Assembly: GCF_008806375.1 (NCBI RefSeq) | Contig: NZ_WAAT01000042.1 | Span: 1-64,000, forward strand | Source: Pseudotamlana haliotis | Lineage (GTDB): Bacteria > Bacteroidota > Bacteroidia > Flavobacteriales > Flavobacteriaceae | Direction of reading: 5' to 3' | DNA length: 64,000 bases | Part shown: positions 23,425 through 43,421 of the stretch, piece by piece | Layout of the letters: each line of letters begins with the position of its first letter | Numbering within the stretch: position 1 is the stretch's first letter | Program-made: the position numbers and the translations under genes | Notes under the pieces: generated by a model | Database searches by the model: none | What the model was told of the DNA's origin: nothing | Seen by the model: the letters and a program-made list of their open reading frames with translations, nothing else

Positions 23425-23465
23425 AGTATCAAGGCTTCGTATTCCTAAAGTTGTGCGGGCGGGGA
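23425..23465. repeat. left attachment site (att) direct repeat
   Basis: 41 bp matching 43311-43351 with two mismatches (at 23438-23439); the last 26 bp are identical. It contains the final 12 nt of the tRNA-Leu acceptor/T-arm side and sits beside a second copy of the tRNA terminator hairpin (23411-23436). It is probably the original tRNA 3' end and terminator, displaced by the insertion. Confidence 0.88.
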
Positions 23466-23665: not shown

Positions 23666-24961
23666 ATGGCAAGCGGGACGTATAGAACAAAAAAAAATGA
23701 CGAATGGAATACTTTGTACTACAGATTTAAGCAAGGTGGGCAATTTGATATCGAACTCTCTACAGGAATCCAAGTGCCAAAAGGCAGGTGGAGCCAAACT
23801 AAACAACAAATATTGACAACTCATAAAATGAATTCCCACGAGTTCAACAAAAAACTATTTGAATTTAATATTTTTATTAGAAAAGAATATGAGGATTCAA
23901 AAATTCACACCAAGATTATCAACTCAAGTTGGCTAAAAGATAAAATATCTACATTTTTCGAAAGAAGAACAGCAAACGAAGAAACCAACCAACACCTGTT
24001 CTTAACCAATTTTATTGATGCTTTTATTTTAGAGTCTCACAAAAAGAAAACAAAAAACAACACTCCTGTTTCTAAAAGAACCATACAACATTATAAAACA
24101 ACCAAAAATAAAATTATCGCATTTGAAGCTTCCACAAATGAACAGGTTCTTTTATCTAATTTAAACATCGATTTCCATACAAAATTTATCGAATTCTTAG
24201 AAGAAGAACAACAACTCAACCCAAATACAATTGGAGGCTATATTGACGACATTAAGTTGTTCTGCAGAAATGCTGTTAGAAAAAACATAAAAATCCCAAA
24301 TGACTATAGATTTCCTGAGTTTTACAGCCCAAGCAACAAAACAAAAGACATTTACCTAAACGAAGTTGAAATAAACAAAATATACAACGCCACATTTAAA
24401 TTAGAACACCTAGATAACGCAAGAGATTGGCTTATCATTGGACTAAGAACAGGGTTTAGAATTTCTGATTTTCTAAAGCTAACCAAAAAAAACATAAAGG
24501 ATGGCTACATAGAAAAAACAACAATAAAAACAGACTTTCCTGTTATCATCCCTTTACACAACCAAGTTAAATTTATATTAGACAAAAGAAAAGGTAATTT
24601 CCCAAGATCCATAAGTGATCAAAAGTTCAATATTTATATAAAGAAGGTATGCCAATTAGTAGAACTTACAGAAAAGGTTGAAGGCGCTAAATTATGCCAC
24701 ATTGACACAGTAGTTGAAAAAGGTAAAAAGAAAAATATATATCGAAAAAAACACGGAATATACCCTAAGTTTGAGTTAGTTACTTCTCATATCTGCAGAC
24801 GTTCATTTGCAACAAACCTTTACGGAAAAATTGACACTTTAACTATTATGAAAATAACAGGTCACAAAACAGAAAAACAGTTTTTGGAATATATCAAAAT
24901 CACCCCAAAAGAATATGCCGAAAAATTAAAGGATTTCTGGAAACTAAACTCAATTAATTAA
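23666..24961 (+). CDS. int: tyrosine recombinase/integrase of the island
   Basis: A 431-residue integrase. Residues about 1-60 look like the arm-DNA-binding domain of Bacteroidota integrases (RTKKNDEWNTLYYRFKQGGQFDIEL..GIQVPKGRWS), 105-215 the SAM-like core-binding domain and 225-425 the catalytic domain. The complete catalytic set is visible: R265 (TGFRISDFL), K288, H375 and R378 (SHICRRSF), H400 (TGH) and nucleophile Y409 (FLEYIKI). It sits next to the left att site and reads into the element. Intact, so the element could still excise. It should recombine the tRNA-Leu 3' end sequence repeated at both borders. Confidence 0.95.
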   Translation: MASGTYRTKKNDEWNTLYYRFKQGGQFDIELSTGIQVPKGRWSQTKQQILTTHKMNSHEFNKKLFEFNIFIRKEYEDSKIHTKIINSSWLKDKISTFFERRTANEETNQHLFLTNFIDAFILESHKKKTKNNTPVSKRTIQHYKTTKNKIIAFEASTNEQVLLSNLNIDFHTKFIEFLEEEQQLNPNTIGGYIDDIKLFCRNAVRKNIKIPNDYRFPEFYSPSNKTKDIYLNEVEINKIYNATFKLEHLDNARDWLIIGLRTGFRISDFLKLTKKNIKDGYIEKTTIKTDFPVIIPLHNQVKFILDKRKGNFPRSISDQKFNIYIKKVCQLVELTEKVEGAKLCHIDTVVEKGKKKNIYRKKHGIYPKFELVTSHICRRSFATNLYGKIDTLTIMKITGHKTEKQFLEYIKITPKEYAEKLKDFWKLNSIN

Positions 24962-27129: not shown

Positions 27130-28740
27130 CTATCTATTTAATGAGTCTTCAATTATACTTTTGATTTTAATTAAAGGCTGTTTATTATTCTTTTTTATTT
27201 GGTTAATCCAATTCTTCATTAAATCACTACCTCTATCTTGGAAATAGTCTAACTCATTTATAGATTTCTCAGAATTAAATGAAATTTCATTTAACTTTAA
27301 AAACATAAGTTCTCTTTTTATAGTCTCCTCCTCTTTATCAATTGAATAGAAGTTTTCAAAATTTATATCCTGAGATATAAACATATCTAAAGGCTTCTTC
27401 TTTTCAAATTGTACCCTATCCAAAGGTTCTTTCATTAATTTTTCAAAATTCACAACCCCAGAACCATATAACTTTGTACTTATATCATCATCAGGAAACC
27501 TTGTTACAGTTCTTTTCAAAATAGATCGGAAAAGCTCAATCTGCTCTACAGGAGAAAAATTATCTAAGCCAGACCCATGATGCATTCTCCACAAGCATGC
27601 AGCAGTTGCTATAATTGGCACAGCAAAACTTGACCCCTCACTCCATTTATATCCATAACCAATTCTCTTTTTTTTCTTATATGGGTAAGGAATATAGATT
27701 TCATAACCAGGAGCACAAACATCAACCTCTCTTCCTCCATGAGTGTAAGCCCATGGTCTATTATTTTGTTTTGATGCAGCTGGTGCAATAGTCCATGGGT
27801 ATTTGGCGGGGTATGTGTAAACTTTTTTTGATCTAAAAACATGAGAACCGGGTGCAGCTATAAAAATCACGCCATTTTTATAAGCGTCAATGGTGGCGAG
27901 CCTATAGGATTTTCGATTCATTAATGAAGCATGACTCATAGAAACTACTGGCATTGTTCCATTCTTGATAATATAATTAATTGCTCTAGGCATTTTATTT
28001 CCAAAGGAAATTATATTCCGAGAAACTCTAAATGGAATTACATTAATACTACCATATTTATCCAGCCCATTGTTTAGATCATCAAATAAAACATCTTTTT
28101 TTGGTATTTGATTATCTATAGGAATAATCGCTTGAACACCATTAATTATACCTGCACATGAAGTACCATGACCTCCCCAAGAAATTGGGAATGGTCTTGT
28201 GCTTTGCAATTTGTCTAATGGCTTCTTAAAACTCTCCCATTTCAAAAAATTTCTTCCATTTACCTTGTCAATTCTTGTAATTTCTGGATGATTAGAATAT
28301 CCTGTATCAATTAAAGCCAAGTTTATTTTACTTTTATTAATATCATAATATCCAGAACCATTTTCAAAAGATTCTTGAAGAAAAGCAAAAGCTTCTTTCA
28401 ATTTAATATTGTTATGATACCAACTAGGATCTGGCCTTTTACTTTTTGAGTCGTTAATTAATTCATTTACACCTGAATACCTTTCATTTATGAGTTGTTC
28501 TTCAAAGCTATCATCTATTAAAACATCAACATCTTTTAGTACATCAAACTTAAGAAGTTCTCTTTCAATTTCAAACGCCTCACTTTGATTTCTTACTTCA
28601 ATTGAAGTTTCACCTGCCAAACTCAGGCACAAATTTTTTTCTGAAAAAAAATCTAAATATTCACCGGTTACAGACTTAACAATTGCAATTGCTTTTTTTC
28701 TATCTGAATGATTCACGTATGCCGTTAATGTTGCTCTCAT
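27130..28740 (-). CDS. S8 family (subtilisin-like) serine peptidase without export signal
   Basis: A 536-residue subtilase. The catalytic triad is Asp145 (LALIDTGYS), His191 (GGHGTSCAGII) and Ser371 (EGSSFAVPI). The first 80-100 residues look like a propeptide (alternating strands and helices) and there is no signal peptide, so it should act inside the cell. Odd: the oxyanion Asn (AAGN in most subtilases) is replaced in IAAPGSHVF (Ser299). The C-terminal 130 residues are charged and helical. Divergent from the DUF4403 lipoprotein gene. It is an island passenger; the target is unknown. Confidence 0.9.
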   Translation of the reverse strand: MRATLTAYVNHSDRKKAIAIVKSVTGEYLDFFSEKNLCLSLAGETSIEVRNQSEAFEIERELLKFDVLKDVDVLIDDSFEEQLINERYSGVNELINDSKSKRPDPSWYHNNIKLKEAFAFLQESFENGSGYYDINKSKINLALIDTGYSNHPEITRIDKVNGRNFLKWESFKKPLDKLQSTRPFPISWGGHGTSCAGIINGVQAIIPIDNQIPKKDVLFDDLNNGLDKYGSINVIPFRVSRNIISFGNKMPRAINYIIKNGTMPVVSMSHASLMNRKSYRLATIDAYKNGVIFIAAPGSHVFRSKKVYTYPAKYPWTIAPAASKQNNRPWAYTHGGREVDVCAPGYEIYIPYPYKKKKRIGYGYKWSEGSSFAVPIIATAACLWRMHHGSGLDNFSPVEQIELFRSILKRTVTRFPDDDISTKLYGSGVVNFEKLMKEPLDRVQFEKKKPLDMFISQDINFENFYSIDKEEETIKRELMFLKLNEISFNSEKSINELDYFQDRGSDLMKNWINQIKKNNKQPLIKIKSIIEDSLNR

Positions 28741-29050
28741 TTTTTAATTAGAATTAATTGCTATTTGAAATTAGACTTTTCATAACTCCTGAAAATATAA
28801 GAATAAATTCTGATAGAATTTCTTTGTTATTATAATTTTATTAATAATTATAATATTCTCTTTTGCATAAAACCACTGTAATTAGCTCATATAATCATCT
28901 ACAATCCAGTAGTTATTAAGGAGAGATAACTTACTTAATCTTTCTGACATAAATTTCTTATATTTATAATCTCGCCTTATTAATTATTAGCAAAGTTTAG
29001 TGTTCCATTTTCTTAATCAGAAGCTCTCCTACTTTAAAACAAACACTATT
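28741..29050. other. divergent intergenic region
   Basis: 310 bp between the subtilase and DUF4403 genes. A+T-rich with stops in all frames, no repeat or RNA recognised. It must hold two divergent promoters; no clear consensus box was found. Confidence 0.5.
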
Positions 29051-31522: not shown

Positions 31523-31548
31523 CTATGAAATTTTAAGATTTTAATGAA

Positions 31549-31573
31549 AAAGGGAAGCTAACCACTTCCCTTT
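31549..31573. terminator. terminator after the DUF4403 gene
   Basis: Perfect 9-bp stem AAAGGGAAG/CTTCCCTTT with 7-nt loop, A-rich before and T-rich after, 27 bp past the stop at 31522 and facing the decayed gene on the other strand. Confidence 0.65.
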
Positions 31574-31635
31574 AACCTATTAATCTCCGAACCTAAAATA
31601 GCGATAGCCACTAACTTTAAGTGAGCTAATTTCTT

Positions 31636-32043
31636 CTATTGCTTGACGTATTTTGGGTTAATCCCCGACGATTGAACAATTTCTATTTCTATATCTGAAT
31701 AGCTTCCAAAGTGATATGTGTTTGTAATAGTTCCACCTGTTTGAATACTTATAATATAATTATCACTATCAATTGTTTCAGAAACAGCAACTAAACCATT
31801 TGACGTTTCAATTCCATTTTTCCAACATGAAGTCTGACTACCTACGATATCGCAAAAATCATCATATGTAAACCTAAACCCTATCCTTGTCTCACCAAGC
31901 AAACCAAGCTCCTTGAATCCAGTTTGAGGGGTTTATATCGGTATTATTACAGAATTATCATCAGATGATGATAATGATGATGATGATGATGATGATATTA
32001 AAAATGTCATTGCTAAAAATAGACCAAGTATCTTTTTTATAAT
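31636..32043 (-). pseudogene. decayed small lipoprotein gene
   Basis: A single frame is open from about 32050 to 31636 except for one in-frame TAA (31933-31935). Upstream of the stop it encodes a lipoprotein-type leader (KKILGLFLAMTFLIS followed by a Ser/Asp run), downstream 'GETRIGFRFTYDDFCDIVGSQTSC' and a beta-rich domain to the end. No ATG is present at the expected start (ATT/ATA instead), and the expected lipobox Cys lies where a TCA repeat now encodes serines. The combination suggests a formerly exported 130-residue lipoprotein, now inactive. Only residues from a TTG at 31902 remain continuously open (88 codons). Confidence 0.5.
31957..31995. repeat. TGA/TCA trinucleotide repeat
   Basis: Seven perfect TGA units (31975-31995) preceded by imperfect TGATGATAA/TCATCA units. 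It lies in the leader of the decayed lipoprotein gene, where it encodes a serine run on the minus strand. Such a tract is prone to slippage. Confidence 0.8.
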
Positions 32044-32135
32044 TTTACTAATTTACAGTTAGTATTCAGAGATTAATTTAAGATTTTTATTTCATTTTTT
32101 TACAAAAAAACACCTACTTATTTTTTTTTAGAAAT

Positions 32136-32699
32136 TCACCTATGCGTGTTAATAAACTCTGTAGGATCTAAATAACCTCTAGTATTAATGTCATAACCTG
32201 ATCCTATCTCCATACCAATTTCATCCCTGATTTCGAAGTGTAAATGAGCTAAATATTTACCATTTGCAGTCCCTATTGTACCAATTTTATCTCCTTTTTC
32301 AACATACATTCCTTCAGTAACCAATATTTCGTCACAATGGGCATACATAGACTCATACATTTCGCCATTTTTTAATATATGAACTATACGTATAACATTA
32401 CCCCACGCAAAAAAAACCTCTTCAGCATAACTTACATAGCCTTTAGAAATAGCGTAAATAGGGTCACCTAAATCTGTATTTCCTCCACCAACACCATTCC
32501 AATCATCACCTAAGTGATTGTTTTTTCTAAACGACTGAGCATTGTAGTAATTATCAGCATCAGGTTTACCAACAGGATAATCAAAACCATTGGCGTAATA
32601 CTTTTTATCAAAGTTTTTTACAATAGCTTCAACTTCTCTTCCCTTGTTATTACAGGAGAAAAGTATTAAGCTCACTATGCCTATTATGGTAACTTTCAT
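32136..32699 (-). CDS. M23 (LytM-like) peptidase lipoprotein
   Basis: A 187-residue lipoprotein. I choose the start at 32699 (MKVTIIGIVSLILFSCNN, SPII lipobox LFSC, Cys16); the longer frame to 32807 adds a charged tail before the signal. Catalytic zinc ligands fit M23: His-x3-Asp in NNHLGDDWNG and HLHFEIR (HxH), with a further His in YAHC. It would cleave peptidoglycan cross-links or other Gly-containing peptides on the periplasmic face. It is an island passenger downstream of a decayed gene on the same strand. Confidence 0.87.
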   Translation of the reverse strand: MKVTIIGIVSLILFSCNNKGREVEAIVKNFDKKYYANGFDYPVGKPDADNYYNAQSFRKNNHLGDDWNGVGGGNTDLGDPIYAISKGYVSYAEEVFFAWGNVIRIVHILKNGEMYESMYAHCDEILVTEGMYVEKGDKIGTIGTANGKYLAHLHFEIRDEIGMEIGSGYDINTRGYLDPTEFINTHR

Positions 32700-32724
32700 A
32701 TGTAAATTTCTTAGATACAAAAAA

Positions 32725-33196
32725 TTATATTTCAATTTCGAAATCTTCTTCGAAGTACTCTGTAAAATTAGAGAAGCCCCAATCTTTATCATAATCGAAT
32801 TCCTCAATACTCGGGCTGTTATGCCCAGCTATATTACAGTCTAAAAAATGAAATAGTTTTTTCAAATGTTCTTCGTCCTTCTTTCGTTTCATTTTCACTA
32901 ACATCACCATAAATCAAAAACTTCTCCGTAACGCCTAATTCAGAATCATATGATACATTTATAGAATAGCTTAAATCATCTTCACCTAATGATTAAAGAT
33001 AGCCATCGACTAAATCATCTAATTCTTGCTGTGTATCACTATCAAGGATATCACCTGTCTCAGCCCAACTTGCAGAACGCATCCCAACTGACTTTATGAT
33101 AATTTTATCTTTTTTCTTAAAAAATACATCCATCAAGCCTACCCCCATTTTATTAATGCATTTTATCAAACTTAAAACCCAAACAATCACTCCCAT
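32725..33196 (-). pseudogene. decayed gene behind the polymerase-like gene
   Basis: A frame starting at ATG 33194-33196, overlapping the 3' end of the polymerase-like gene by 10 bp, encodes about 67 residues (..GVGLMDVFFKKKDKIIIKS..ETGDILDSDTQQELDDLVDGYL), meets a TAA at 32993-32995, then stays open in the same frame to 32834 (SLGEDDLSYSINVSYDSELGV..). A second frame (32725-32910) carries a plausible acidic C-terminus (LKKLFHFLDCNIAGHNSPSIEEFDYDKDW). The simplest reading is one former gene of about 155 codons with a stop mutation and a frameshift near 32870-32910. Family not recognised. Confidence 0.45.
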
Positions 33197-34554
33197 ACTT
33201 TTACACTAAATACAGGGGTGAATTTTAGCACCTCTGAGAGACTTTCTCTCATATACTGATACAAGTAATCAATATTGTCTTCAGTTGTAATTAAACAGTC
33301 GTGAAGGGTAAATAACAGCTTCTTACCATTAAACTTTCTATTAAATCCACGCGCAACTATATCCAACATGAAATAACTCTCCATTTGTAACACCAAATAA
33401 GAAAAACACCTATGATCAATTTTCTTAAACTGTTTTAACCATTTTAAAATACTTGGAAAAAGCATATTAAACTCTGCTTCTTCATTTAGAAACTGTCCTG
33501 ACTCAGCATTTAGCATAGACAAGAAATTAAGCTTCACAACTTGACGCAAATCATCTTCATCACCATCAAACGGTCTACCAAATATTCGCTCAACATTTTT
33601 TAGGTAATACTCATCGGGTTTTAAGGATTTATCGAAGTTATGAATGGTATGCATACCCTCTATAAAAGTCTCATAAAACTGCCCTGAAATGACTTTTTCT
33701 CCGAAAAGAGCAATCTCTTTATCCATAGGTGTTTCAAGCGTTTTACAGAACATATAATGACGATAGTAATACTTATTAGAAGTAATAACATTAGACATAT
33801 GAATATCATTAGTATTTATATTACTTAATATGTAATACAAAATAGTTGGTATAGAAGCAGATAAATCGCATTCTACGAGTTTTTTTCCGTCGTACCTCAA
33901 AAAAGGGCGTAACTCTTTTGAGAGATTGGTTAATTGATGATGCAACCTACCATCGGTTCTCTCTGAATATTTTATTGAAAATTCTCCATTCGCTATCTCT
34001 GTAATTTTACCTGCATTTAGCAAGTGTTTCTTGTAGTTTAAATTCTCATCATACAAATCGGTATTTTTACGGCTTGCCGCCTCTGAATCTATTGTTAATT
34101 TTTCATTGAAATATTTTCCTAAAAAATTATATTCCTTTTTAAAAGCATTATCACTTTTAAGAACAGCTTTAGCCCTTAAAAACCTCAGCAGTTTTTTATC
34201 TGTGACATTAACAATTTCAACCTTTTCTTTAAAAAAATAAGGATTTAATCGGTACGAATAACAGTTTCCTACAGCATAAGAATCTCTAAACAAAACATTT
34301 CCTATAACAGGAAAGTTTTCGCATAAATACCTTAAATGAAGCCTATAATCGTACGGGTGCTTCTTGGTTATCATTGAGCATAACGGAATCCAAATATCGG
34401 TTTCATCGCTCTCTAATTTATACGCTGTTTTTTTTATAATCTCACTAACTAACCAATAAGCGTAATCTATATTAAAATTAAAATCAGGAGGGGAGTGTTT
34501 TAATCGGTTATTTAGGTTTAATATACACGGTTTTATAATACTATATTGTTTCAT
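33187..34554 (-). CDS. family-A polymerase-like protein of the island (putative replication protein)
   Basis: A 455-residue protein I do not recognise by name, but its C-terminal 260 residues carry an ordered set of motifs like family-A DNA/RNA polymerases: GRLHHQLTNLSKELRPFLR (202-220), motif A-like LVECDLSASIP (D230), motif B-like RQVVKLNF (R337, K341, F344) and motif C-like TLHDCLIT (H418, D419). The N-terminal 200 residues are basic and helical. It follows an HTH gene and a 123-aa gene on the same strand, with a long hairpin (34574-34617) 20 bp before its ATG, and is followed by a decayed gene overlapping its end. A replication role for the excised element is inferred; the activity is not proven. 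Confidence 0.55.
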   Translation of the reverse strand: MKQYSIIKPCILNLNNRLKHSPPDFNFNIDYAYWLVSEIIKKTAYKLESDETDIWIPLCSMITKKHPYDYRLHLRYLCENFPVIGNVLFRDSYAVGNCYSYRLNPYFFKEKVEIVNVTDKKLLRFLRAKAVLKSDNAFKKEYNFLGKYFNEKLTIDSEAASRKNTDLYDENLNYKKHLLNAGKITEIANGEFSIKYSERTDGRLHHQLTNLSKELRPFLRYDGKKLVECDLSASIPTILYYILSNINTNDIHMSNVITSNKYYYRHYMFCKTLETPMDKEIALFGEKVISGQFYETFIEGMHTIHNFDKSLKPDEYYLKNVERIFGRPFDGDEDDLRQVVKLNFLSMLNAESGQFLNEEAEFNMLFPSILKWLKQFKKIDHRCFSYLVLQMESYFMLDIVARGFNRKFNGKKLLFTLHDCLITTEDNIDYLYQYMRESLSEVLKFTPVFSVKVWE

Positions 34555-34573
34555 TTTTTCATTTAAGTTTAGG

Positions 34574-34617
34574 CAATACCAAGCCTAGCGATGAATTAAC
34601 ATCGCTTAGCGGTATTG
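34574..34617. repeat. long imperfect hairpin before the polymerase-like gene
   Basis: Nested inverted repeats CAATACC/GGTATTG (34574-34580/34611-34617) and AGCGATG/CATCGCT (34587-34593/34600-34606) around loop AATTAA, joined by short internal loops. It sits in the 94-bp gap between the 123-aa gene and the polymerase-like gene. It could be a replication-origin cruciform or an RNA attenuator in the operon. A second small stem TGCCT/AGGCA lies at 34641-34655. Confidence 0.5.
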
Positions 34618-34648
34618 TCATTAAAAAATTAATTACTAGTTGCCTGTA

Positions 34649-35020
34649 TTAGGCAGAAATGTTAATACAAGAAGAAAGCTCTTCGTGTGTTTCTGTTAAT
34701 TCTAACATTTCTTTAGAAAGTGAAGCAGGCACAAGATGGCGTACTTTTTCGCGTTTCCAATTTTCAGAAATCCTGAAGGTGTTTTCATTCTCACACCCTT
34801 CAATAAAATTGAAGCGTTTAAAAAAGATTAAATACGTTTCAAAAGCCTCTAATTTAAAAGTATAATGAGGTCTTTTAATCCAATCATTTTCTTCTTCATT
34901 TAAAAGTGTTTGAAAATACAGAATCGCTGTTTCTCTGCTTAATTTAGCTTTCTCTAATTGCACCTCTAAGTAGTTAAAGCTTTCTACTACTTTTTCGTAA
35001 GTGGTTAATTCTACTCTCAT
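34649..35020 (-). CDS. unrecognised 123-aa island protein
   Basis: A 123-residue, mostly helical, charged cytoplasmic protein: MRVELTTYEKVVESFNYLEVQLEKAKLSRETAILYFQTLL, then a short segment 'HYTFKLEAFETYLIFFKRFNFIEGCENENTFRISENW' that could be a winged-helix-like hairpin, and an acidic tail. No family recognised. Its ATG overlaps the stop of the HTH gene by 1 bp, so it is the second gene of the HTH-123aa-polymerase-like module and probably takes part in replication, excision or their control. That is inferred from position. Confidence 0.65.
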   Translation of the reverse strand: MRVELTTYEKVVESFNYLEVQLEKAKLSRETAILYFQTLLNEEENDWIKRPHYTFKLEAFETYLIFFKRFNFIEGCENENTFRISENWKREKVRHLVPASLSKEMLELTETHEELSSCINISA

Positions 35021-35301
35021 TAGGCTACATCGTTTAAAAGATTTAACAATTCGCTTTTTGAGTAGTACACGCGACCTCCTAATTTTTTAGGCTTAATTAG
35101 GTCTTTCTTCCCATACTCCCATATGGTTGTATAAGAAATGTCTAAGAAACGGCACGCCTCATCTCGTGTGAGCAAATCCTTTTCTACTGTTTGAGAGCTT
35201 GAGACTAAATCTCTTACTTTTCTCAGTTCTGAAGCTACTGCTTCTGTAATCATTACTTGTAAGTCTTCTACGGATAGACCAAAGCCTTGAAAATTTTTCA
35301 T
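35020..35301 (-). CDS. excisionase/MerR-type helix-turn-helix protein
   Basis: A 93-residue DNA-binding protein. Residues about 43-93 (LLTRDEACRFLDISYTTIWEYGKKDLIKPKKLGGRVYYSKSELLNLLNDVA) are a winged helix-turn-helix of the HTH_17/excisionase class common next to integrases in Bacteroidota elements. The N-terminal 40 residues form a helix. It is the first gene of a three-gene module; the 107-bp gap to the 412-codon gene contains its promoter. Likely recombination directionality factor or regulator of the element. Confidence 0.85.
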   Translation of the reverse strand: MKNFQGFGLSVEDLQVMITEAVASELRKVRDLVSSSQTVEKDLLTRDEACRFLDISYTTIWEYGKKDLIKPKKLGGRVYYSKSELLNLLNDVA

Positions 35302-35408
35302 CTTCTTTTAATTTTACACTTCTCCTTCATTGAAAAAGCTAAAGCAAAATTGAAAAAAGGGAAAACAGGGAAAAACACAGGGGAATTTTTTTTACAAAAC
35401 ACTAATTA

Positions 35409-36647
35409 TCAATACATTATGTTTGTATTTTTTATTTTAGGTATTTTTTTTAATTTTTCCCTACTAATATTCAACTTGGATTCAATTATATCTGAAGTCT
35501 TTTTTACTGAATTAAACGGATAATGTCTATTTTTAGAATCGAGATTACTGTAATACTTTCTGTACTGCTCAGCATTTTCAGTTTTAAACAAAGTAAAATC
35601 GCTAATAAATTTTTTAAAATCTTTTATTCTATCAAGCTCTCCTTCGTAAAAATCAAAAACAAAAAAAAGATATAAAATATGAAACTGACTGACAGCTTGT
35701 GAGAAGTCATTGCTTCTTATGTTTAATTTAGAAAACTTATTATTCTGCAATAAATTGAAAAGAATATTAATTTCCGCATCACAAAAACCTTTTGTATCTA
35801 AATTTGTAACAAGTAAAGTATGTTTCTTCTTTAAATCCTCTAATTCTTTTTTAAGTTCTTCATTTTTATGACGCTCTTCAATAGAATTTTCAGTTTTAAC
35901 ACCAAAATATGTATAGTTAAGGTATTCAAGAGGTAATTGACTAAGGTTTTGTTTTACATCAAACTTCAACCCTCCTAAACAATGATTATAATCACCAACA
36001 GGAAGAGTTTCTAACAGATGTATTATAGTTTCTTTAGAGTCTAAGAAAAATTCTTGCTTTTCAAAATTATCTATAAAGCCCTGGACTTGAAAATGATTCT
36101 TATTAATGGATTCAAAAAGCGAATGCTCATACTCTTTTTGTTTTAATTTTTTAAAGTTATCCGACAAATCTAAACTTAACCTGTTATACTGCAAAAAAGT
36201 GTTTTCAATATGACTCAATTCGTTTGTTAACTCACTTTTCATTAAGGATTCAACACTATTGTAAAACTGTACAAAGAATGATATATAAACACCACTGTTT
36301 ATTTTTTTAAATTGTAGATACTTTTCAAAATAATTACCAAAATCCTCAGCACTTATATCTAAAGGCATACCTCCATCATAATAATGATTGTAATTGTCAG
36401 AAAAATATTCAATAATTAATCTTTGTTCATCCTTATCTAAAAACTCATCAAAGGACTGAAAATCATCATTGTAATTTATTTTCGAAGTCAATATTTCAGG
36501 AATTTCCTCAATATTTTCATCTAAAAAATCTTTATAATCTTCAATTATGTTTTTTTCTTGATAAAAAAAATCAATTATATCATTTAACAATTCGTAATCA
36601 CAAAATGTAAACACAATAAAATCTAAAAGCCTTTCTTCCCTTGTCAT
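35409..36647 (-). CDS. unrecognised 412-aa protein, fourth gene of the type I R-M operon
   Basis: A 412-residue, acidic, almost entirely helical cytoplasmic protein I cannot assign. Features: acidic N-terminus (DYKDFLDENIEEIPEIL), a coiled-coil stretch near residues 265-295 (EERHKNEELKKELEDLKKKHTLLV), a helical block with 'FNLLQNNKFSKLNIRSNDFSQAVSQFHILYLFFVFDFYEG', and a basic C-terminus. It starts 12 bp after the hsdR stop on the same strand, so it is most likely co-transcribed with hsdMSR. No nuclease, methylase or ATPase motif is seen. It could be an accessory defence or control protein; this is inference from context. Confidence 0.75.
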   Translation of the reverse strand: MTREERLLDFIVFTFCDYELLNDIIDFFYQEKNIIEDYKDFLDENIEEIPEILTSKINYNDDFQSFDEFLDKDEQRLIIEYFSDNYNHYYDGGMPLDISAEDFGNYFEKYLQFKKINSGVYISFFVQFYNSVESLMKSELTNELSHIENTFLQYNRLSLDLSDNFKKLKQKEYEHSLFESINKNHFQVQGFIDNFEKQEFFLDSKETIIHLLETLPVGDYNHCLGGLKFDVKQNLSQLPLEYLNYTYFGVKTENSIEERHKNEELKKELEDLKKKHTLLVTNLDTKGFCDAEINILFNLLQNNKFSKLNIRSNDFSQAVSQFHILYLFFVFDFYEGELDRIKDFKKFISDFTLFKTENAEQYRKYYSNLDSKNRHYPFNSVKKTSDIIESKLNISREKLKKIPKIKNTNIMY

Positions 36648-36659
36648 ACTCTAAAACAT

Positions 36660-39600
36660 TTAAACAACCGCTCTATTTCCATAATCCCTATACTGAGATT
36701 CGAAAAAATTATACAATACTTCTGTTTTAACAGCAATGTCGCCATCTTCGTAAGTTGGATAAGGAAGCTTACTATACAAGTAATCGTTAATGGCTTTTCT
36801 TACCGCAGATTTGGTTTGGCTTTTCTCTGTCCAATCCACCACCTTAAACTCATTATCTTGTAGCTTTTTAAGCAAATTTTTAGCAGCTTCTTTAACCTCA
36901 GCTTTCTCCTTATCGCTTATCTTTTTACCTTTATTTAGCATATCGAACACCGCCAACTCTTCTTCGCTTAACATTTCCTTACCTGATCGTTTTTCCTCTT
37001 CGGTAAGCTCTCCAAATAAGTTAAGCAATTCGTCAAACACTTCTTTAATAGACTTATATTCTTTACCTAAGTTATAGTCTTCTATAATTTCCTCGTAACG
37101 CTCGAAATAATCTACACGTAACGGGTTGTTTTTAATTAAAGCATCCAATTTTTTCTTTACACGCTCCTGTAAGGATTTAACAGCAATGTTTTGATTAGAT
37201 TTTAACTGCTCGAACTCGGCTTTTATTTTATCGAAATCTAACTGACTTATATCTACCTGCTTCCCGTAATCTTCTACTTTGTTAAGTTCTGTATTATAAG
37301 TTTCTATAGACTCGTTAACCACATCTTGCACTTGCTTTACTAAGTAAGTAACATCGGCTTCATCTACTTTATCGGCAATTAAATTATATAAGCCATTTAT
37401 AGCATCGCGTTCTGCTTTGTAATTATAAATGGCTTGGTTAGGCATTAAGGCTTTATATTTTTTAAAAACCTCTCTTGCCAATACATTAAATTTATTTCTG
37501 GTGTCTTGATTTTTACAAACAGCATTATAACCTTCCTGTAAATACTTAATACGGTAGATGGTATCTTCAGCTTTAGCTATTAGGTCTAAATCAAAATCGC
37601 AATCGTGTTTTAAAAAAGATATTGAAGCATCTATGGTTTCTTTTAACTCTTCCTCTAATTCCTCTATAGGCTTTACAGGTGGCTCATCAACAGTTTCTTC
37701 GCCTGCCGAACCTTTACTACCTCCACCATAAATAGCCAACGCATTAAGTAACGCTTTGTATGTCTCTATATAATCTACTATTAAGCCGTTGTTTTTACCT
37801 GTATGCACACGGTTTGCCCTTGCAATGGCTTGCATTAAGGTATGTGATTTTAATGGTTTATCTATATACAAGGTAGAGAGGCTTTTTACATCAAACCCTG
37901 TAATCCACATAGCACAAACAATGGCAATTCTAAACGGATTAGCTTCATCTTTAAACTCGCTTTCTAAATCGCGGGTATTCATTTTTTCGCGATGCGGTTG
38001 TATATCTAAATCCCAATCTCTAAACTTTTTAATCTCGTTTTGCTCGGAACTTATGATAACAGAAACTTCGGTTTCCTTTACCCATTTTAAATTTCGATAG
38101 GCTATTATTTGTTCCTGCTCATCGGTTATTTTAGTAACCTCTTTTTCTAATGTTTCAATGTACTTTTGCCATTCTGCAGTAATAAAATTGTACATTTTTA
38201 CAGCCGTAACTTTATCTAAAGCCACAAACAATGCTTTTCCTTTATAGCCTCTTGTATTAAAATGCTGCACCACATCTTTAGCTATAGCTTTTAAACGCTT
38301 ATTAGCTGTTAAAATAGGATACTCTCTTGCAAATAATTTTTTTAGTTTTTCTTCTTCATTATCATCTAAATCGAAGGCGTCTATTTTACTTTTTATTTGC
38401 TCGTCTATTTTTGGATTTTCAAGCTTTAATTTCTCCCCTCTGTTTTCATAATACAACGGAACGGTTGCGCCATCTTCTATAGAGCGTTTAAAATCGTATT
38501 TAGACACATAGTCTCCAAAAATACGCTTGGTTAACTCGTCGTCTTTAAAAAGAGGTGTTCCTGTAAAGCCCATAAAAGAAGCGTTAGGCAAAGCTTTACG
38601 CATATTCATTGCAAAAGTACCGCCTTGTGTACGGTGGGCTTCGTCTGAAATAACAATAATATCGTCGCGCTGACTTAATTCTTCTTCAAAATTAAATTTA
38701 TGAATGAGTGAGAATATGTATTTATTATCGGTTTGCAGTAATTCTTTTAAATGCGTTGCCGAAGTGGCTTTGGCTTTTTTGTTTTTTGCAGCACCAACCC
38801 CTTCATAGGTACCGTAAATTTGGTCGTCTAACTCGGTTCTATCGGTTAATAAAACAAAGGTGTAATTACTACTTAATTGTCTTGCTATTTTTTGAGTAAG
38901 GAAAACCATTGAATACGATTTACCCGAACCTTGTGTATGCCAAAACACCCCTAAGCGTTGCGATTCTTCTTTAGAAATTTCGCCTTTACTATAGTTTTCT
39001 TTTAACGTTTTAAGATGTTTAACCGCTTTATTTACCCCTAAAAACTGATGGTTTCTCGCTACAAGCTTAGCTACTTTTTCTAATGAATCATCATACAATA
39101 TAAAGTTTTCAAAAATATCTAACAGGTTCTTTTTATCGCAGGTGCCTTTAATAACCGTTTCTAAACTAATAATACCTTCTTCTTCCTCTTTAATACGTTT
39201 CCACTCGTGGTAATGTTCAAATTTTGAAGTAAACGAACCTACTTTGCTTTCTATACCATTACTTAAAATAATAAAAGCGTTGGTATGCCACATTTTAGGT
39301 ATAACATCTTTATAATCGGTTAGGTTTTTCTCGTAAGCCGATTTTATAGAAATATGATGCGCCTTTAACTCTATAAACACCAATGGCAAACCGTTTACAA
39401 AACCAACAACATCGGGTCTTCTTTTCATTCCCGATACGCCTTTTACCCACAATTGCTGAACGGCTAAAAAATGATTGTCTTGAGGATTTTTAAAATTAAA
39501 AACCTGTATTTTCTTTTCTTTAATTAACTCACCTTTTTCGTTTTTGTAAGTTACAGAAATGCCTTTTTTAAGCAGTTGGTATTTTTCTTGGTTAATATCT

Positions 39601-39863
39601 GCTAAGGTTTTAGAAGCTTCTGCTTTTGCTATTTGCTCGTAAGCTTGGGTGTATGCCACCTCAGGCAAATTAGGATTGAGTTTTTTTATAGCGGCAATAA
39701 AATGATGCTTTAAAACCACCTGCTCTTGGCTGTCTCTACCAATAGTACCCAAAGCCCCAAAACTTTCGTTATGAAACACATTGGCAGTTTCCCAACCCAA
39801 ACCTTTTAACAGGCTTATGGTGGTTTTTTCTATTAAGTTGTCTTCTGAATAATCATTGCTCAT
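36660..39863 (-). CDS. hsdR: type I restriction enzyme endonuclease/translocase subunit HsdR
   Basis: A 1067-residue subunit that translocates DNA with ATP and cuts it away from the recognition site. N-terminal PD-(D/E)xK nuclease: RRPDVVGFVNGLPLVFIELKA (Asp151, Glu165, Lys167). Superfamily 2 motor: Walker A TQGSGKS (310-316), DEAH (407-410), GFTGTP, and QAIARANRVH (motif VI). The C-terminal 300 residues are the helical part binding the methylase core. Full length, no disruption. It overlaps hsdS by 4 bp (ATGA). It carries the restriction half of the island's defence. Confidence 0.97.
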   Translation of the reverse strand: MSNDYSEDNLIEKTTISLLKGLGWETANVFHNESFGALGTIGRDSQEQVVLKHHFIAAIKKLNPNLPEVAYTQAYEQIAKAEASKTLADINQEKYQLLKKGISVTYKNEKGELIKEKKIQVFNFKNPQDNHFLAVQQLWVKGVSGMKRRPDVVGFVNGLPLVFIELKAHHISIKSAYEKNLTDYKDVIPKMWHTNAFIILSNGIESKVGSFTSKFEHYHEWKRIKEEEEGIISLETVIKGTCDKKNLLDIFENFILYDDSLEKVAKLVARNHQFLGVNKAVKHLKTLKENYSKGEISKEESQRLGVFWHTQGSGKSYSMVFLTQKIARQLSSNYTFVLLTDRTELDDQIYGTYEGVGAAKNKKAKATSATHLKELLQTDNKYIFSLIHKFNFEEELSQRDDIIVISDEAHRTQGGTFAMNMRKALPNASFMGFTGTPLFKDDELTKRIFGDYVSKYDFKRSIEDGATVPLYYENRGEKLKLENPKIDEQIKSKIDAFDLDDNEEEKLKKLFAREYPILTANKRLKAIAKDVVQHFNTRGYKGKALFVALDKVTAVKMYNFITAEWQKYIETLEKEVTKITDEQEQIIAYRNLKWVKETEVSVIISSEQNEIKKFRDWDLDIQPHREKMNTRDLESEFKDEANPFRIAIVCAMWITGFDVKSLSTLYIDKPLKSHTLMQAIARANRVHTGKNNGLIVDYIETYKALLNALAIYGGGSKGSAGEETVDEPPVKPIEELEEELKETIDASISFLKHDCDFDLDLIAKAEDTIYRIKYLQEGYNAVCKNQDTRNKFNVLAREVFKKYKALMPNQAIYNYKAERDAINGLYNLIADKVDEADVTYLVKQVQDVVNESIETYNTELNKVEDYGKQVDISQLDFDKIKAEFEQLKSNQNIAVKSLQERVKKKLDALIKNNPLRVDYFERYEEIIEDYNLGKEYKSIKEVFDELLNLFGELTEEEKRSGKEMLSEEELAVFDMLNKGKKISDKEKAEVKEAAKNLLKKLQDNEFKVVDWTEKSQTKSAVRKAINDYLYSKLPYPTYEDGDIAVKTEVLYNFFESQYRDYGNRAVV

Positions 39864-41086
39864 ACTTCTAAAGTTCTATTCATTAAACGTGGTAAGAGTA
39901 GGTCTCTTGCTTCCTTTAAATAACTATTCTTTTTTGACAGTATATTTTGTTCTGAAAATATAGGCTTTACTAATTTCTGAAAATCAATTAACAAATCATC
40001 GGTCGGTAAATTAATTTCTATTTTTCTAATTGAACTAATAGTAAATGCCTTCTGACTAGAACCAATAGATATAGACTTAATTATATTTTTAAACTCTAAA
40101 CTCTTAAAATAACTAATTAAATAAATAGAAAATTCTTCTGAAATATTAGTTATCCAAATTAAATTACCGTCTTTAAAATAAAACTCCTTATCAAATTTAT
40201 TAACCCGATAGACATTCCCTATTGTTCCAACACTAGTAATTAAAATATCACCCTCAACAGGTGCTCCAAATTTATTTTTAAGAGTATTAAATTTCTCTTC
40301 ACTTATATAAAATGGTTCTCGGACATCTTTAAATTCTGTCTTTAGAGTAATTTCCTTGCCTCTATAAAATAAAACACCTTTATCTACATAATCTGAGCTG
40401 TAAATTCTTTTACTAGATTTAACTTCAGAAATTTCATTTAACAATTTCTCTTCCCACCCTTCAGGCAAACCTGTTTCTTCGTTGATGGGTGTATTTTCGT
40501 GGTTTGGGAATTTAAAATCTACAAACCATTCTTTATAGAGGCGTTGCGCTGTTTCTTCTAACAATTGAATACGCTTTAGGTTGTTTTCAATTAAATCATC
40601 ATACGCACTTAAAATGGAGGCTATTTTTTTTTGGGTTGGTAGTGGTGGGAGTGGAAATTCATAATTTCTAATAGCTTTAAGACCTAAATTCTTTATAGTA
40701 GAACCTGTAGCAAATGCTTCAGCATAACTTTGAAATTTTTCACTTTCTAAAATATACCGAATATAAAGTTTACTAACATCTTGATTTATATTTAAATAAC
40801 AAGCACTTTTTCCTAAAGCAATTTTTTCGTCATTATAAATACCTACATTTCCTAAAGTTCCATTTATAGATACAAAAACCGTCCTATCGTTTAGTTCTTT
40901 CTTTATTTTTTGATATTCTTCTTCTCCAATTTTTTTTGTTTCAGCCTTTATTTCAACTTTACCCTGTTTGAGATTGTTGCCATTTATAAAGTAATACTCC
41001 CCATTTTCATCATATTTTGGTGTTCCGTGTAGTCCATCCCCAATTTTAGATGTTACATTTAGTAAATTTGTGTTCTCCCAACTCAT
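39860..41086 (-). CDS. hsdS: type I R-M specificity subunit HsdS
   Basis: A 408-residue DNA-recognition subunit with two target-recognition domains (about residues 1-150 and 200-360), each followed by a conserved helical dimer segment: PPLPTQKKIASILSAYDDLIENNLKRIQLLEETAQRLYKEW (about 147-190) and a shorter one at the end (PIFSEQNILSKKNSYLKEARDLLLPRLM). The two TRDs read different halves of a bipartite site that cannot be predicted. No inverted repeat or second hsdS copy, so no sign of a shuffling locus. Overlaps hsdM and hsdR by 4 bp each. Confidence 0.96.
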   Translation of the reverse strand: MSWENTNLLNVTSKIGDGLHGTPKYDENGEYYFINGNNLKQGKVEIKAETKKIGEEEYQKIKKELNDRTVFVSINGTLGNVGIYNDEKIALGKSACYLNINQDVSKLYIRYILESEKFQSYAEAFATGSTIKNLGLKAIRNYEFPLPPLPTQKKIASILSAYDDLIENNLKRIQLLEETAQRLYKEWFVDFKFPNHENTPINEETGLPEGWEEKLLNEISEVKSSKRIYSSDYVDKGVLFYRGKEITLKTEFKDVREPFYISEEKFNTLKNKFGAPVEGDILITSVGTIGNVYRVNKFDKEFYFKDGNLIWITNISEEFSIYLISYFKSLEFKNIIKSISIGSSQKAFTISSIRKIEINLPTDDLLIDFQKLVKPIFSEQNILSKKNSYLKEARDLLLPRLMNRTLEV

Positions 41087-42972
41087 ATCCCCAAGTCCGT
41101 TAAATCAGTTTGTATTTGTTCAGCTAAATCAACAGCTTCCTCATTTAACAAGTGTAGTTCTTGTTTAATTTCTGCCATACGCTCATCAAAATCAAAACCT
41201 TCCTCTTCCTCTATGGGTGCAACACCTACATAACGCCCTGCGGTAAGGCTGTAATCGTTGGTTTTAATTTCGTCTCGGTTAACTATTTTACACAAACCTG
41301 CTACATTGGTATAAATACCTTCAGGGAAACGCTTTTCTAACCAATGCGCTTCTTTAGTAAAATAAGTATGTTGGTCTATTTGTTTGTTAATAGCTTCTAA
41401 AAATGTTTCAAGGCTACTAATGTGGTCTTGGGTCTGTTTTTTAAGAGTCTTATCTTTTTTAACCGCCTCTGTTTTTAATTCGGCTTTAAGCGTTTCTATT
41501 TGCTTTTTGGTAGCGGTGTTTAGTTTGCGTTTGTCTTCTTTTATGTTTTCCGCTTTAAGCGTATCTGTTACAGTAGCTAACAACTTTTCTGCATAGGTGT
41601 TTTTAAGCAGAATATTAGCTTCTTTTAGGTGCTGTGTAGCGTTTTCTTTGTACTGCGCAAGTGTTTGTGCAAACAGGGTATTATCGCCCCTGTAAAGCGC
41701 TACAATAGCGTGTATGTTTTGTAAATGTTCATCGGTAAAATCGTGTAAGTTAGAGGACACTTTACGATACACATCCCTGAGGTCTAACATTAGGGTTTTG
41801 TCTGCTCTATCGGCATCTAATTCCTTAGCACGGTCAAAAAACCAAATAGAACACGGTAAAGAACGGGTGTAGAAAAACTTAGTACCTATAGACACCATAA
41901 CATCTACAGCTCCTGTTTCTACCAATTGTTGGCGTATGGTTTTTTCGGAATGCCCTGCATCACTTGCAGAACTTGCCATAACAAAACCTGCTCTTCCGTT
42001 TTGGTTTAAGTATTTATAAAAATATTGAATCCACAGGTAATTGGCGTTGTCGTTTTTAGGTAAACCAAACGGTAAACGCGGGTCGTTTTTAACGCTTTCT
42101 TTTTTCTTATCTACCCCATCTACATTAAACGGTGGATTAGCCATTACAAAATCGCAATCGCCCACTAAATTATGATGGTCTTGATAAAAACTGTTTCCCT
42201 GCATAATGTTGGCATCCAAACCGTGAACAGCCATATTCATTTTAGCCAACTTGGTGTTGGTATCTGCTTTTTCTTGACCGTAGAAGGTTACTTTTTTAGA
42301 GGCTTCTGTTTGTAGCTTTTCCTCAATAAAATGGGCGGTTTGCACAAACATACCTGCACTACCACAGGCAGGGTCGAACACCGTACCGTGGTTAGGCTCT
42401 ATAATTTTTACAATGGTATTTACAAGACTTGGCGGTGTAAAAAACTCGCCACCTTCTTGTGCGCCACTCATTGCAAATTTGTTTAAGAAGTATTCGTAAA
42501 TACGCCCAAAAACATCGCCTGTAACATTATCTAACAAGGGGTCGTTAAAAATACGTATCAAACGAAACAGTAAATCGCTTTCAAAAAGCATATACTCTTT
42601 AGGCAATACATCTTGCAGCACGTCGTATTCTTCCTCAATACTTTTCATTGCCTCGTTTAGGTATTCGCCAATGTCTACACTTTCAGGAAGCTCGTTAATG
42701 GTTTTCCATTGGGCGTTATCGGGTAAATATATAGCGTTGGCAGAAAGAAAATCTGTTTTATTTACAGGTCTTTTTCCTCGTTGTGGATGCGAAGGTAAAG
42801 TAGCTTCTATTTCTACTTTAGCAGTTACAAAACGATTGTATGCGTGTCTTAAAAATATTAAACCCAACACAGGAAAACTGTATTCGGTTGCTGTAAGTTT
42901 ACTATTTGCTCTTAGGTCGTCGGCAGCTTTCCAGAGTCTATCTTCAAGCTGCTTTAATTGGTCTCTTGTCAT
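41083..42972 (-). CDS. hsdM: type I R-M N6-adenine methyltransferase subunit HsdM
   Basis: A 629-residue modification subunit. SAM motif I FDPACGSAGMF (199-209) and catalytic motif IV NPPF (279-282) identify a gamma-type N6-adenine methylase; the HsdM N-terminal helical domain precedes (LKQLEDRLWKAADDLRANSKL). The central insertion (about 470-560) is coiled-coil-like and Lys/Glu-rich. First gene of hsdM-hsdS-hsdR-412aa; its start lies 370 bp from the tRNA-Leu gene, so it is the cargo closest to the right end of the element. Confidence 0.97.
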   Translation of the reverse strand: MTRDQLKQLEDRLWKAADDLRANSKLTATEYSFPVLGLIFLRHAYNRFVTAKVEIEATLPSHPQRGKRPVNKTDFLSANAIYLPDNAQWKTINELPESVDIGEYLNEAMKSIEEEYDVLQDVLPKEYMLFESDLLFRLIRIFNDPLLDNVTGDVFGRIYEYFLNKFAMSGAQEGGEFFTPPSLVNTIVKIIEPNHGTVFDPACGSAGMFVQTAHFIEEKLQTEASKKVTFYGQEKADTNTKLAKMNMAVHGLDANIMQGNSFYQDHHNLVGDCDFVMANPPFNVDGVDKKKESVKNDPRLPFGLPKNDNANYLWIQYFYKYLNQNGRAGFVMASSASDAGHSEKTIRQQLVETGAVDVMVSIGTKFFYTRSLPCSIWFFDRAKELDADRADKTLMLDLRDVYRKVSSNLHDFTDEHLQNIHAIVALYRGDNTLFAQTLAQYKENATQHLKEANILLKNTYAEKLLATVTDTLKAENIKEDKRKLNTATKKQIETLKAELKTEAVKKDKTLKKQTQDHISSLETFLEAINKQIDQHTYFTKEAHWLEKRFPEGIYTNVAGLCKIVNRDEIKTNDYSLTAGRYVGVAPIEEEEGFDFDERMAEIKQELHLLNEEAVDLAEQIQTDLTDLGI

Positions 42973-43284: not shown

Positions 43285-43296
43285 AAAATAAAAAAA

Positions 43297-43321: not shown

Positions 43322-43351
43322 TTTATATTCCTAAAGTTGTGCGGGCGGGGA
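43311..43351. repeat. right attachment site (att) direct repeat
   Basis: 41 bp matching 23425-23465 with two mismatches (26 bp identical, 43326-43351). It covers the last 12 nt of the tRNA-Leu gene, its 3' flank and half of the terminator hairpin. Confidence 0.88.
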
Positions 43352-43421
43352 GACTCGAACTCCCACACCTCGCGGCACTAGATCCTAAGTCTAGCGTGTC
43401 TACCAATTCCACCACGCCCGC
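43340..43421 (-). tRNA. tRNA-Leu(UAG), integration site
   Basis: 82 nt without encoded CCA. Acceptor GCGGGCG (43415-43421) pairs with 43341-43347, discriminator A at 43340; anticodon stem CTAGA/TCTAG with loop CTTAGGA, anticodon TAG; a long variable arm and T-arm GGGAGTTCGAGTCTCCC as in class II tRNAs. Its 3' end forms the right border of the element and is rebuilt by element sequence. Confidence 0.95.

What the first reader, a model, noticed from the sequence alone, without database searches (positions are those of the whole stretch)
33187..34554. Family-A polymerase-like protein as the possible replication enzyme of the island
An unrecognised 455-residue protein has, in the right order and spacing, GRLHHQ..R, a motif A-like VECDLSASIP (D230), a motif B-like RxxxKxxF (R337/K341/F344) and a motif C-like LHDC (H418-D419). 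In family-A polymerases these three motifs form the palm/fingers active site. It is far shorter than PolA, without a visible exonuclease domain, and is encoded behind an excisionase-like HTH gene and a hairpin. A minimal polymerase or primase-polymerase serving an integrative element would be notable.
Basis: inference. Interest (0 to 1): 0.75.

Follow-up and report, generated by a model that had tools for sequence, protein, structure and literature searches.

The report
Compact DNA polymerase of mobile islands
A short protein on a mobile DNA island in a bacterium really does look like a stripped-down DNA-copying enzyme, of a kind first described in 2008, and its relatives sit on similar islands that often carry anti-virus defence genes.

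Summary
The 455-residue ORF is real, on the minus strand (33187-34554). Its AlphaFold2 model (pLDDT 83.9) matches family-A DNA polymerases: 50 of 50 rows shown, best Z 14.9, rmsd 3.2-4.0 A over about 255 residues. Motif A (D230), motif B (R337/K341) and motif C (H418-D419) are conserved across 73 relatives. There is no exonuclease domain; the first ~130 residues look like a winged helix (weak match).

It lies on a 19.9-kb island between 26-bp direct repeats at a tRNA-Leu 3' end, with a tyrosine integrase and type I restriction-modification genes. Relatives occur in 40 of 397 sampled Flavobacteriaceae genomes. A recombinase was found at 31 of 36 loci and an HTH_17 gene at 26, against 1 and 0 of 20 control stretches. 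Defence genes were hit in 14 of 21 loci scanned.

It best fits the TV-Pol family (Iyer 2008), predicted primase-polymerases of mobile elements: a new member of a known kind. Departures: no helicase recurs upstream of it, and the steric-gate pair is altered in the window's clade. Activity is inferred, not shown.

The parts
33187..34554 (-). Compact family-A (TV-Pol-like) polymerase, 455 aa
   Evidence: ORF; fold; family; no Pfam or NCBIfam match, weak PHROG_4756
34168..34554 (-). N-terminal domain (residues 1-129), winged-helix-like
   Evidence: Separate model of residues 1-130 pLDDT 87.2; best Z 6.8 to winged-helix proteins, weak; Foldseek no match below E 1
33946..33948 (-). R203, Arg of the TDGRLH stretch (PolA TGR motif)
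   Evidence: 72 of 73 letters R; in-register match to host PolA TGRVHT, not significant
33865..33867 (-). D230, motif A catalytic Asp
   Evidence: 72 of 73 letters D
33850..33852 (-). I235, position of the Klenow steric-gate Glu710 (mapping by motif spacing; Klenow numbers recalled)
   Evidence: Q 64, H 4, V 3, I 2, never E; I or V only in the window's clade
33544..33546 (-). R337, motif B Arg of RxxxK
   Evidence: 60 of 69 letters R
33532..33534 (-). K341, motif B Lys
   Evidence: 69 of 69 letters K
33508..33510 (-). N349, position of Klenow Tyr766
   Evidence: F 37, Y 23, N 9; aligned to PolA Tyr
33298..33303 (-). H418-D419, motif C
   Evidence: D 70 of 70 and H 67 of 70 letters
34649..35020 (-). 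123-aa ORF of unknown function between HTH_17 gene and polymerase
   Evidence: No Pfam match
35020..35301 (-). HTH_17 (excisionase-like) gene, 93 aa
   Evidence: Pfam HTH_17 E 2.4e-9; same family at 26 of 36 loci, this one being a seed
35409..36647 (-). 412-aa ORF, unknown
   Evidence: No Pfam match
23666..24961 (+). Tyrosine recombinase (integrase), 431 aa
   Evidence: Phage_int_SAM_5 E 1.3e-11, Phage_integrase E 7.1e-9
23440..23465 (+). Left copy of the 26-bp direct repeat (attachment site)
   Evidence: 26 of 26 identical to 43326-43351; imperfect repeat reaches about 23404
43326..43351 (+). Right copy of the direct repeat, overlapping the tRNA-Leu 3' end
43339..43421 (-). tRNA-Leu used as integration site
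   Evidence: ARAGORN; this flank matched in all 5 other genomes of the genus
36660..39863 (-). Cargo: type I restriction enzyme (HsdR)
   Evidence: PADLOC REase_I E 2.2e-165
39860..41086 (-). Cargo: type I specificity subunit (HsdS)
   Evidence: PADLOC Specificity_I E 7.3e-72
41083..42972 (-). Cargo: type I methyltransferase (HsdM)
   Evidence: PADLOC MTase_I E 4.5e-227

Best explanation
It is a TV-Pol-like, exonuclease-free family-A DNA polymerase encoded by an integrative island. Most likely mechanism: the integrase with the HTH_17 protein excises the island at tRNA-Leu (inferred). The polymerase is steered to island DNA by its N-terminal winged-helix-like domain, and starts and/or extends DNA strands on the excised form with the two-metal chemistry of D230 and D419 (inferred). 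Host replication proteins, including a host helicase, do the rest (inferred). Shown here: the fold prediction, active-site conservation, purifying selection, mobile context and direct repeats. Not shown: polymerase activity, priming, excision, or any replication of the island. Confidence is about 0.95 for 'family-A polymerase fold with a conserved active site' and about 0.6 for 'primes or replicates the island'; the value below is for the whole statement.
For: Model pLDDT 83.9, pTM 0.83. Foldseek E 3.1e-6, probability 1.00; the 50 rows shown of 449 matches are family-A polymerases. VIA-align Z 14.9, rmsd 4.0, 255-258 residues for apicoplast Pol, and Z 14.9, rmsd 3.2, 255 residues for Pol theta; 50 of 50 rows shown family A. 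Residue counts over 73 sequences. Constraint: dN 0.274 against dS 1.89 (near saturation) for window and L007; dN 0.074, dS 0.537 for L007 and L008. Integrase HMM hits at 30 of 36 loci plus one serine recombinase (itself the seed), HTH_17 family at 26 of 36 (7 seed loci of each are hits by construction, leaving 23 of 29 and 19 of 29), against 1 of 20 and 0 of 20 control stretches of the same genomes. Pfam: HTH_17 matched 28 and Phage_int_SAM_5 24 of 99 upstream proteins. The cargo differs from locus to locus while the polymerase stays. TV-Pols are predicted primase-polymerases (PMC2579912) and CCPol-MP is a shown one (PMC7581432, passages).
Against: No helicase family matched two or more of 99 upstream proteins (25 of 44 families listed, by falling count), unlike the known TV-Pol-helicase pairs. 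No SSB-like partner was recognised, although only Pfam was tried. No iteron-like array was seen in 34400-36700. Sequence-only profile comparison with PolA is not significant: single PolA rows score 17.5-27.2 against at most 20.2 for 29 other window ORFs. The steric-gate Glu of family-A DNA polymerases is absent. In the window the integrase is not next to the polymerase, and 5 of 36 loci showed no recombinase.
Confidence: 0.6

Rival explanations
1. It fills gaps or repairs DNA only during integration and excision, or converts incoming single-stranded island DNA to double strand; it does not start replication.
For: Polymerase fold without a recurring helicase partner; tight link to recombinase genes.
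Against: Tyrosine recombinases are not known to need DNA synthesis (recalled); the host already has PolA (1 copy); a TV-Pol primes DNA with its partner MP (PMC7581432, passages).
Confidence: 0.18
2. It is itself a defence component (as some reverse transcriptases are) carried as cargo.
For: Sits near defence genes in 14 of 21 loci scanned.
Against: It keeps its place beside HTH_17 and integrase genes while the defence cargo changes; 7 of 21 scanned loci gave no PADLOC hit; relatives also occur in phage and viral contigs.
Confidence: 0.1
3. It is a small single-subunit RNA polymerase or RNA-priming enzyme rather than a DNA polymerase.
For: Motif C is HDS-like (S in 54 of 70 letters at 420), as in T7 RNA polymerase (IHDSFGT); no gate Glu.
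Against: All rows shown in the fold comparison are DNA polymerases, though RNA polymerases may merely rank lower; CCPol strongly prefers dNTPs (PMC7581432, passages).
Confidence: 0.1
4. The motifs are a chance resemblance and there is no polymerase.
For: No Pfam, NCBIfam or credible PDB sequence match; sequence profile comparison with PolA at noise level.
Against: Fold match and invariant active-site residues.
Confidence: 0.02

Closest known systems
TV-Pol family (Iyer, Abhiman and Aravind 2008, PMC2579912, whole main text read)
   Same: Minimal family-A core, proteins of 400-600 aa without nuclease domain; beta-hairpin Arg, two palm Asp, RxxxK fingers; in mobile elements with integrase or resolvase, mostly in hot spots with restriction-modification operons; bacteroidetes members are listed (species abbreviations include Flavobacteriales, Polaribacter, Psychroflexus, Cytophaga).
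   Different: No D5-like helicase recurs upstream; N-terminal part modelled as alpha/beta winged-helix-like, whereas the paper predicts an all-helical N-terminal domain for a subset. Whether these exact proteins are in its alignment could not be checked (supplement not held).
PolA-SSB primases, SCCmec CCPol-MP (PMC7581432, passages; PMC10061031, abstract, introduction and passages)
   Same: Mobile-element family-A polymerase near recombinases; CCPol-MP primes DNA without a primer.
   Different: No recurring helicase and no recognised OB-fold partner here; no exonuclease remnant seen; no sequence comparison with CCPol was made.
Bacterial DNA polymerase I (host copy)
   Same: Palm and fingers fold; three motifs align in register (scores not significant).
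   Different: No 5' nuclease or 3'-5' exonuclease domain; gate Glu never present in 73 sequences; half the length.
Divergent phage PolAs divPolA1 and divPolA2 (PMC11348598, section 13 and passages)
   Same: Divergent PolA palm without working exonuclease; BFVD structural hits include a Rheinheimera Barba phage protein (that it is divPolA2 is my inference).
   Different: Weak profile similarity only (a Flavobacterium phage protein that I take as divPolA1: hhalign score 26.2); phage context, beside a second DNA polymerase.

Membership tests
TV-Pol | Thumb made of two antiparallel helices before the palm | tested here: met
   Model helices 157-171 and 174-188 before the R203 stretch; their antiparallel packing was not measured
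TV-Pol | Beta-hairpin with absolutely conserved Arg | tested here: met
   R203, 72 of 73 letters (RLH was part of the search patterns)
TV-Pol | RRM-like palm with two conserved Asp | tested here: met
   D230 72 of 73, D419 70 of 70 letters; fold
TV-Pol | Fingers with RxxxK | tested here: met
   R337 60 of 69, K341 69 of 69 letters
TV-Pol | Conserved Asp in the fingers | tested here: inconclusive
   No invariant fingers Asp; its position is not given in the text read
TV-Pol | No nuclease domain | tested here: met
   Only ~130 residues before the polymerase part, modelled as winged-helix-like; no Pfam nuclease
TV-Pol | Encoded by mobile elements with integrase or resolvase | tested here: met
   31 of 36 loci against 1 of 20 control stretches
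TV-Pol | Association with D5-like helicase (a subset of the family) | tested here: not met
   No helicase family matched two or more of 99 upstream proteins; not a universal feature in the paper
TV-Pol | Significant sequence similarity to a known member | tested here: inconclusive
   Microcystis phage LMM01 MAP_030 (my identification as its TV-Pol): hhalign score 24.1 against at most 20.2 for other window ORFs; HMM E 8.9e-4 in a 3-sequence search, best stretch in the N-terminal domain
TV-Pol | Primase and polymerase activity | not testable with these tools
   Needs biochemistry
PolA-SSB primases (CCPol-MP) | OB-fold SSB partner in the operon | tested here: inconclusive
   No partner recognised by Pfam; neighbours were not modelled
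PolA-SSB primases (CCPol-MP) | Helicase in the same operon | tested here: not met
   Window upstream ORFs without Pfam helicase; none recurring
Bacterial DNA polymerase I | Pfam DNA_pol_A match and exonuclease domains | tested here: not met
   No match for the window protein at E 1; DNA_pol_A not among the 13 families matched by any of 28 sequences at E 0.1
Bacterial DNA polymerase I | Steric-gate Glu in motif A | tested here: not met
   Q 64, H 4, V 3, I 2, E 0
T7-like RNA polymerase | Fold closer to RNA than DNA polymerases | tested here: inconclusive
   No RNA polymerase among the rows shown, which does not exclude it

The most novel reading that the evidence does not exclude
A one-protein replication starter: an origin-binding winged helix fused to a family-A primase-polymerase that needs no helicase of its own is the hallmark of a widespread class of Bacteroidota integrative islands that ferry exchangeable anti-phage systems. 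In most of the window's clade both partners of the steric-gate pair are altered (the usual Gln to Ile/Val, and Tyr/Phe to Asn), so it may accept ribonucleotides and make RNA or mixed primers.
Probability: 0.2. Interest if true: 0.75.

Novelty: new member of a known kind. Interest (0 to 1): 0.5.

Why it matters
If true, a protein that carries no Pfam or NCBIfam name becomes a testable replication enzyme, and a marker gene for finding mobile islands with defence cargo in Bacteroidota (40 of 397 sampled Flavobacteriaceae genomes, the window's own included). It would give a small system for asking how a family-A polymerase starts DNA without a dedicated helicase gene beside it, and whether gate changes allow priming with ribonucleotides.

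Tried and rejected
The viral-contig scan with the single protein found no relative; the alignment-based scan did. tblastn found only 4 uncultured-phage records (two of the same length) and one Hymenobacter plasmid. Sequence searches of the PDB gave a PYR1 hit (E 1.6), a designed TPR protein (CTPR-rv4, E 8.9e-5, over profile positions 133-190; taken as spurious) and Mcm5 (E 0.35). hhalign against host PolA, T7 RNA polymerase, T7 DNA polymerase, LMM01 MAP_030, divPolA1 and a Flavobacterium phage PolA was not significant, although several of the best stretches put the right motif on the right motif; T7 DNA polymerase did so with the 28-row profile but not with the 70-row one.

MAP_030 as query brought only close copies from Microcystis phages and viral contigs and one doubtful hit with stops in 148 genomes, so no TV-Pol profile could be built. 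No iterons near the gene. The fold search of the N-terminal domain gave only weak winged-helix matches (Z 6.8 or less; no Foldseek E below 1).

PADLOC was run on chosen large neighbouring ORFs: 11 loci at E 1e-5 (8 with hits: window, L007, L008, L009, L010, L011, L016, L021; none in L013, L018, L020) and 10 of 19 further loci at E 1e-20 (6 with hits: L121, L129, L130, L131, L133, L136; none in L122, L125, L132, L140). Some hits (L121, L016) cover only part of the protein. No background rate for PADLOC hits was measured. Of 57 genomes with a match, regions from 20 were fetched, mostly best-scoring ones; L137 was dropped as a duplicate of L011. Of the 13 viral loci only L024 went into the context count, so the phage-like relatives are hardly represented in it. 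The tree is a FastTree with many long branches; only the window's clade is used.

Recalled, from no call: Klenow residue numbers and the role of Glu710 and Tyr766 as the steric-gate pair (a paper search for it was seen as a listing only).

Full report
OBSERVATION. The 455-aa ORF lies on the minus strand at 33187-34554. It has no Pfam or NCBIfam match and a weak match to PHROG_4756, unknown function (E 1e-6). The window belongs to contig C72 of genome G000, in the same family as G054, which I take to be Flaviramulus basaltis because G054:C11 and NZ_FPKV01000004.1 are both 330,695 bases long and hold the same relative; so the host is taken as Flavobacteriaceae (inference). The host has its own single PolA. 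None of 5 other genomes of the genus has the protein.

RELATIVES. Single-protein search: 5 of 99 genomes including the window's own, one of these a doubtful fragment with stops. Alignment search: 15 loci in genome contigs, all titled as Bacteroidota, and 13 in viral contigs. Profile search: 40 of 397 sampled Flavobacteriaceae genomes and 20 of 395 sampled genomes of the phylum, both at E 0.001 and including the window's own genome. A homologue sits on a 35-kb Hymenobacter plasmid and weak ones in uncultured phage records of 595-735 kb.

ACTIVE SITE. In 76 aligned segments from 73 unique sequences: R203 72 of 73 letters, D230 72 of 73 (one E), R337 60 of 69, K341 69 of 69, E392 69 of 70, H418 67 of 70, D419 70 of 70. 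The relatives were found by patterns on the RLH motif and, also motif A, so those two motifs are partly selected for; motifs B and C were not in the patterns. dN/dS is about 0.14 for window against L007 (dS near saturation) and for L007 against L008, so the gene is under constraint.

FOLD. The AlphaFold2 model has pLDDT 83.9 and pTM 0.83. Foldseek against the PDB: best E 3.1e-6, 118 matches at E 0.001 or better, the 50 shown all family-A DNA polymerases. VIA-align: best Z 14.9 (rmsd 4.0 over 258 residues, apicoplast polymerase; rmsd 3.2 over 255, Pol theta), covering residues ~130-455, 50 of 50 rows shown family A. Motif A lies at the end of strand 224-231 and motif C on the turn between strands 415-417 and 420-424, as expected for a palm. 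BFVD gave closer phage proteins (E 4.5e-20, 409 aa; E 3.7e-16, 'Putative DNA polymerase I', 403 aa). Residues 1-130 modelled alone (pLDDT 87.2) resemble winged-helix proteins (Fur, MarR, ORC winged helix, a Rep initiator; Z 6.8 and below), which is weak.

SEQUENCE-ONLY TEST. hhalign of a 70-row profile against host PolA gave three local matches in the right register: GRLHHQ to TGRVHT, motif B, motif C. The scores do not rise clearly above background: single PolA rows 17.5-27.2, 29 other window ORFs up to 20.2, T7 RNA polymerase 21.5, T7 DNA polymerase 13.9, LMM01 MAP_030 24.1. So membership in family A rests on structure plus motif register, not on sequence statistics.

STERIC GATE. By motif spacing, Klenow Glu710 corresponds to I235 and Tyr766 to N349 (Klenow numbers recalled; N349 is also aligned to a PolA Tyr). 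The gate position is Q in 64, H in 4, V in 3, I in 2, never E (one search's motif A pattern itself asked for Q or I there). In the tree of 70 rows, I or V occurs only in the 5-row window clade (window, L007, L008, L076, L009; support 99), and 4 of these 5 also have N at 349. Against a simple reading, N at 349 also occurs in 6 rows outside this clade that keep Q or H at the gate. That both positions matter together is an inference from alignment and untested.

ISLAND. A 26-bp exact direct repeat (23440-23465 and 43326-43351), continued imperfectly to about 23404 and 43290, overlaps the 3' end of tRNA-Leu and bounds 19.9 kb with a tyrosine integrase at the left end and type I restriction-modification genes at the right. 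The tRNA-Leu side matches in all 5 other genomes of the genus. In G001 and G004 the left-flank gene lies 10-11 kb away, with a second copy of the repeat core next to it; G002 has an integrase and an HTH_17-type gene beside a copy of the repeat core, without the polymerase in the stretches read. So the site looks like an integration hotspot. No empty site was shown.

CONTEXT OF RELATIVES. In 24 of 36 the integrase is upstream on the same strand within 4.4 kb, and in 25 of 36 the HTH gene is upstream on the same strand within 1.9 kb. Seven seed loci of each profile are hits by construction, leaving 23 of 29 and 19 of 29. Five loci showed no recombinase. Twenty arbitrary 19.5-kb stretches of the same genomes gave 1 and 0. 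Pfam on 99 upstream same-strand proteins of 31 loci: HTH_17 28, Phage_int_SAM_5 24, Phage_integrase 21; no helicase family matched two or more (25 of 44 families listed, by falling count). L014, L015, L017, L019 and L024 were left out of that count.

CARGO. Among loci whose chosen large neighbouring ORFs were scanned with PADLOC, 8 of 11 and 6 of 10 had hits: type I, IIG and III restriction-modification, AbiD, a Septu-like pair (PDC-M01), DndD/PbeC-like, an RT_UG39 reverse transcriptase and others. Some cover only part of the protein, and no PADLOC background was measured. In the window the restriction-modification genes lie on the HTH side of the polymerase; in the other scanned loci I took ORFs downstream of it.

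COMPARISON. TV-Pol (PMC2579912, whole main text) describes minimal family-A polymerases in mobile elements of bacteroidetes and others, some linked to integrase or resolvase genes, mostly in hot spots with restriction-modification operons, and predicts primase plus polymerase activity. That already covers the general setting seen here. The window protein meets four of the structural features given there and the context; the fingers Asp and sequence similarity are inconclusive. CCPol of SCCmec, counted as a TV-Pol, primes DNA together with MP and prefers dNTPs (PMC7581432, passages). In the library 8 papers hold 'TV-Pol', 6 of them relevant by title. In what I read of four of these I saw no account of this Bacteroidota island class beyond the 2008 paper; two were read as passages or sections only, and most papers of subscription journals and the 2008 supplement are not held.

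VERDICT. The protein is best filed as a new member of the TV-Pol kind, with its own setting: a winged-helix-like N-terminus, no recurring helicase, an altered gate pair in its clade, and tRNA or other islands that often carry defence genes. Function remains inference.

Noticed in passing
window 23404-23465 and 43290-43351; L161, L162, L164: The tRNA-Leu site looks like an integration hotspot in this genus: G001 and G004 hold other DNA between two copies of the repeat core, and G002 has an integrase and HTH gene beside one copy.
   Followed up: partly
L009 6238-7896: In Flaviramulus basaltis the gene upstream of the polymerase is a serine recombinase (Resolvase, Recombinase, Zn_ribbon) and no tyrosine integrase was found in the locus, so the recombinase type seems exchangeable.
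   Followed up: no
L019 7626-9227: The Taibaiella homologue has a long C-terminal tail; one of 28 sequences matched the phage antirepressor domain ANT/KilAC (E 9.6e-9), by my reading this one.
   Followed up: no
L006 19728-21302: A homologue is carried on a 35-kb Hymenobacter qilianensis plasmid with mostly hypothetical genes, possibly as its replication protein.
   Followed up: no
LR756501, LR745206, LR756511 (phage records): Weak homologues in uncultured phage records of 595-735 kb.
   Followed up: no
window 27130-32807: The island also carries a subtilase-like ORF (by eye), an 840-aa ORF that I did not search and an M23 peptidase (E 4.5e-19) between integrase and polymerase.
   Followed up: no
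L011 10384-12321: The Chryseobacterium cheonjiense locus carries an RT_UG39 reverse transcriptase (PADLOC E 1.6e-197) near the polymerase.
   Followed up: no
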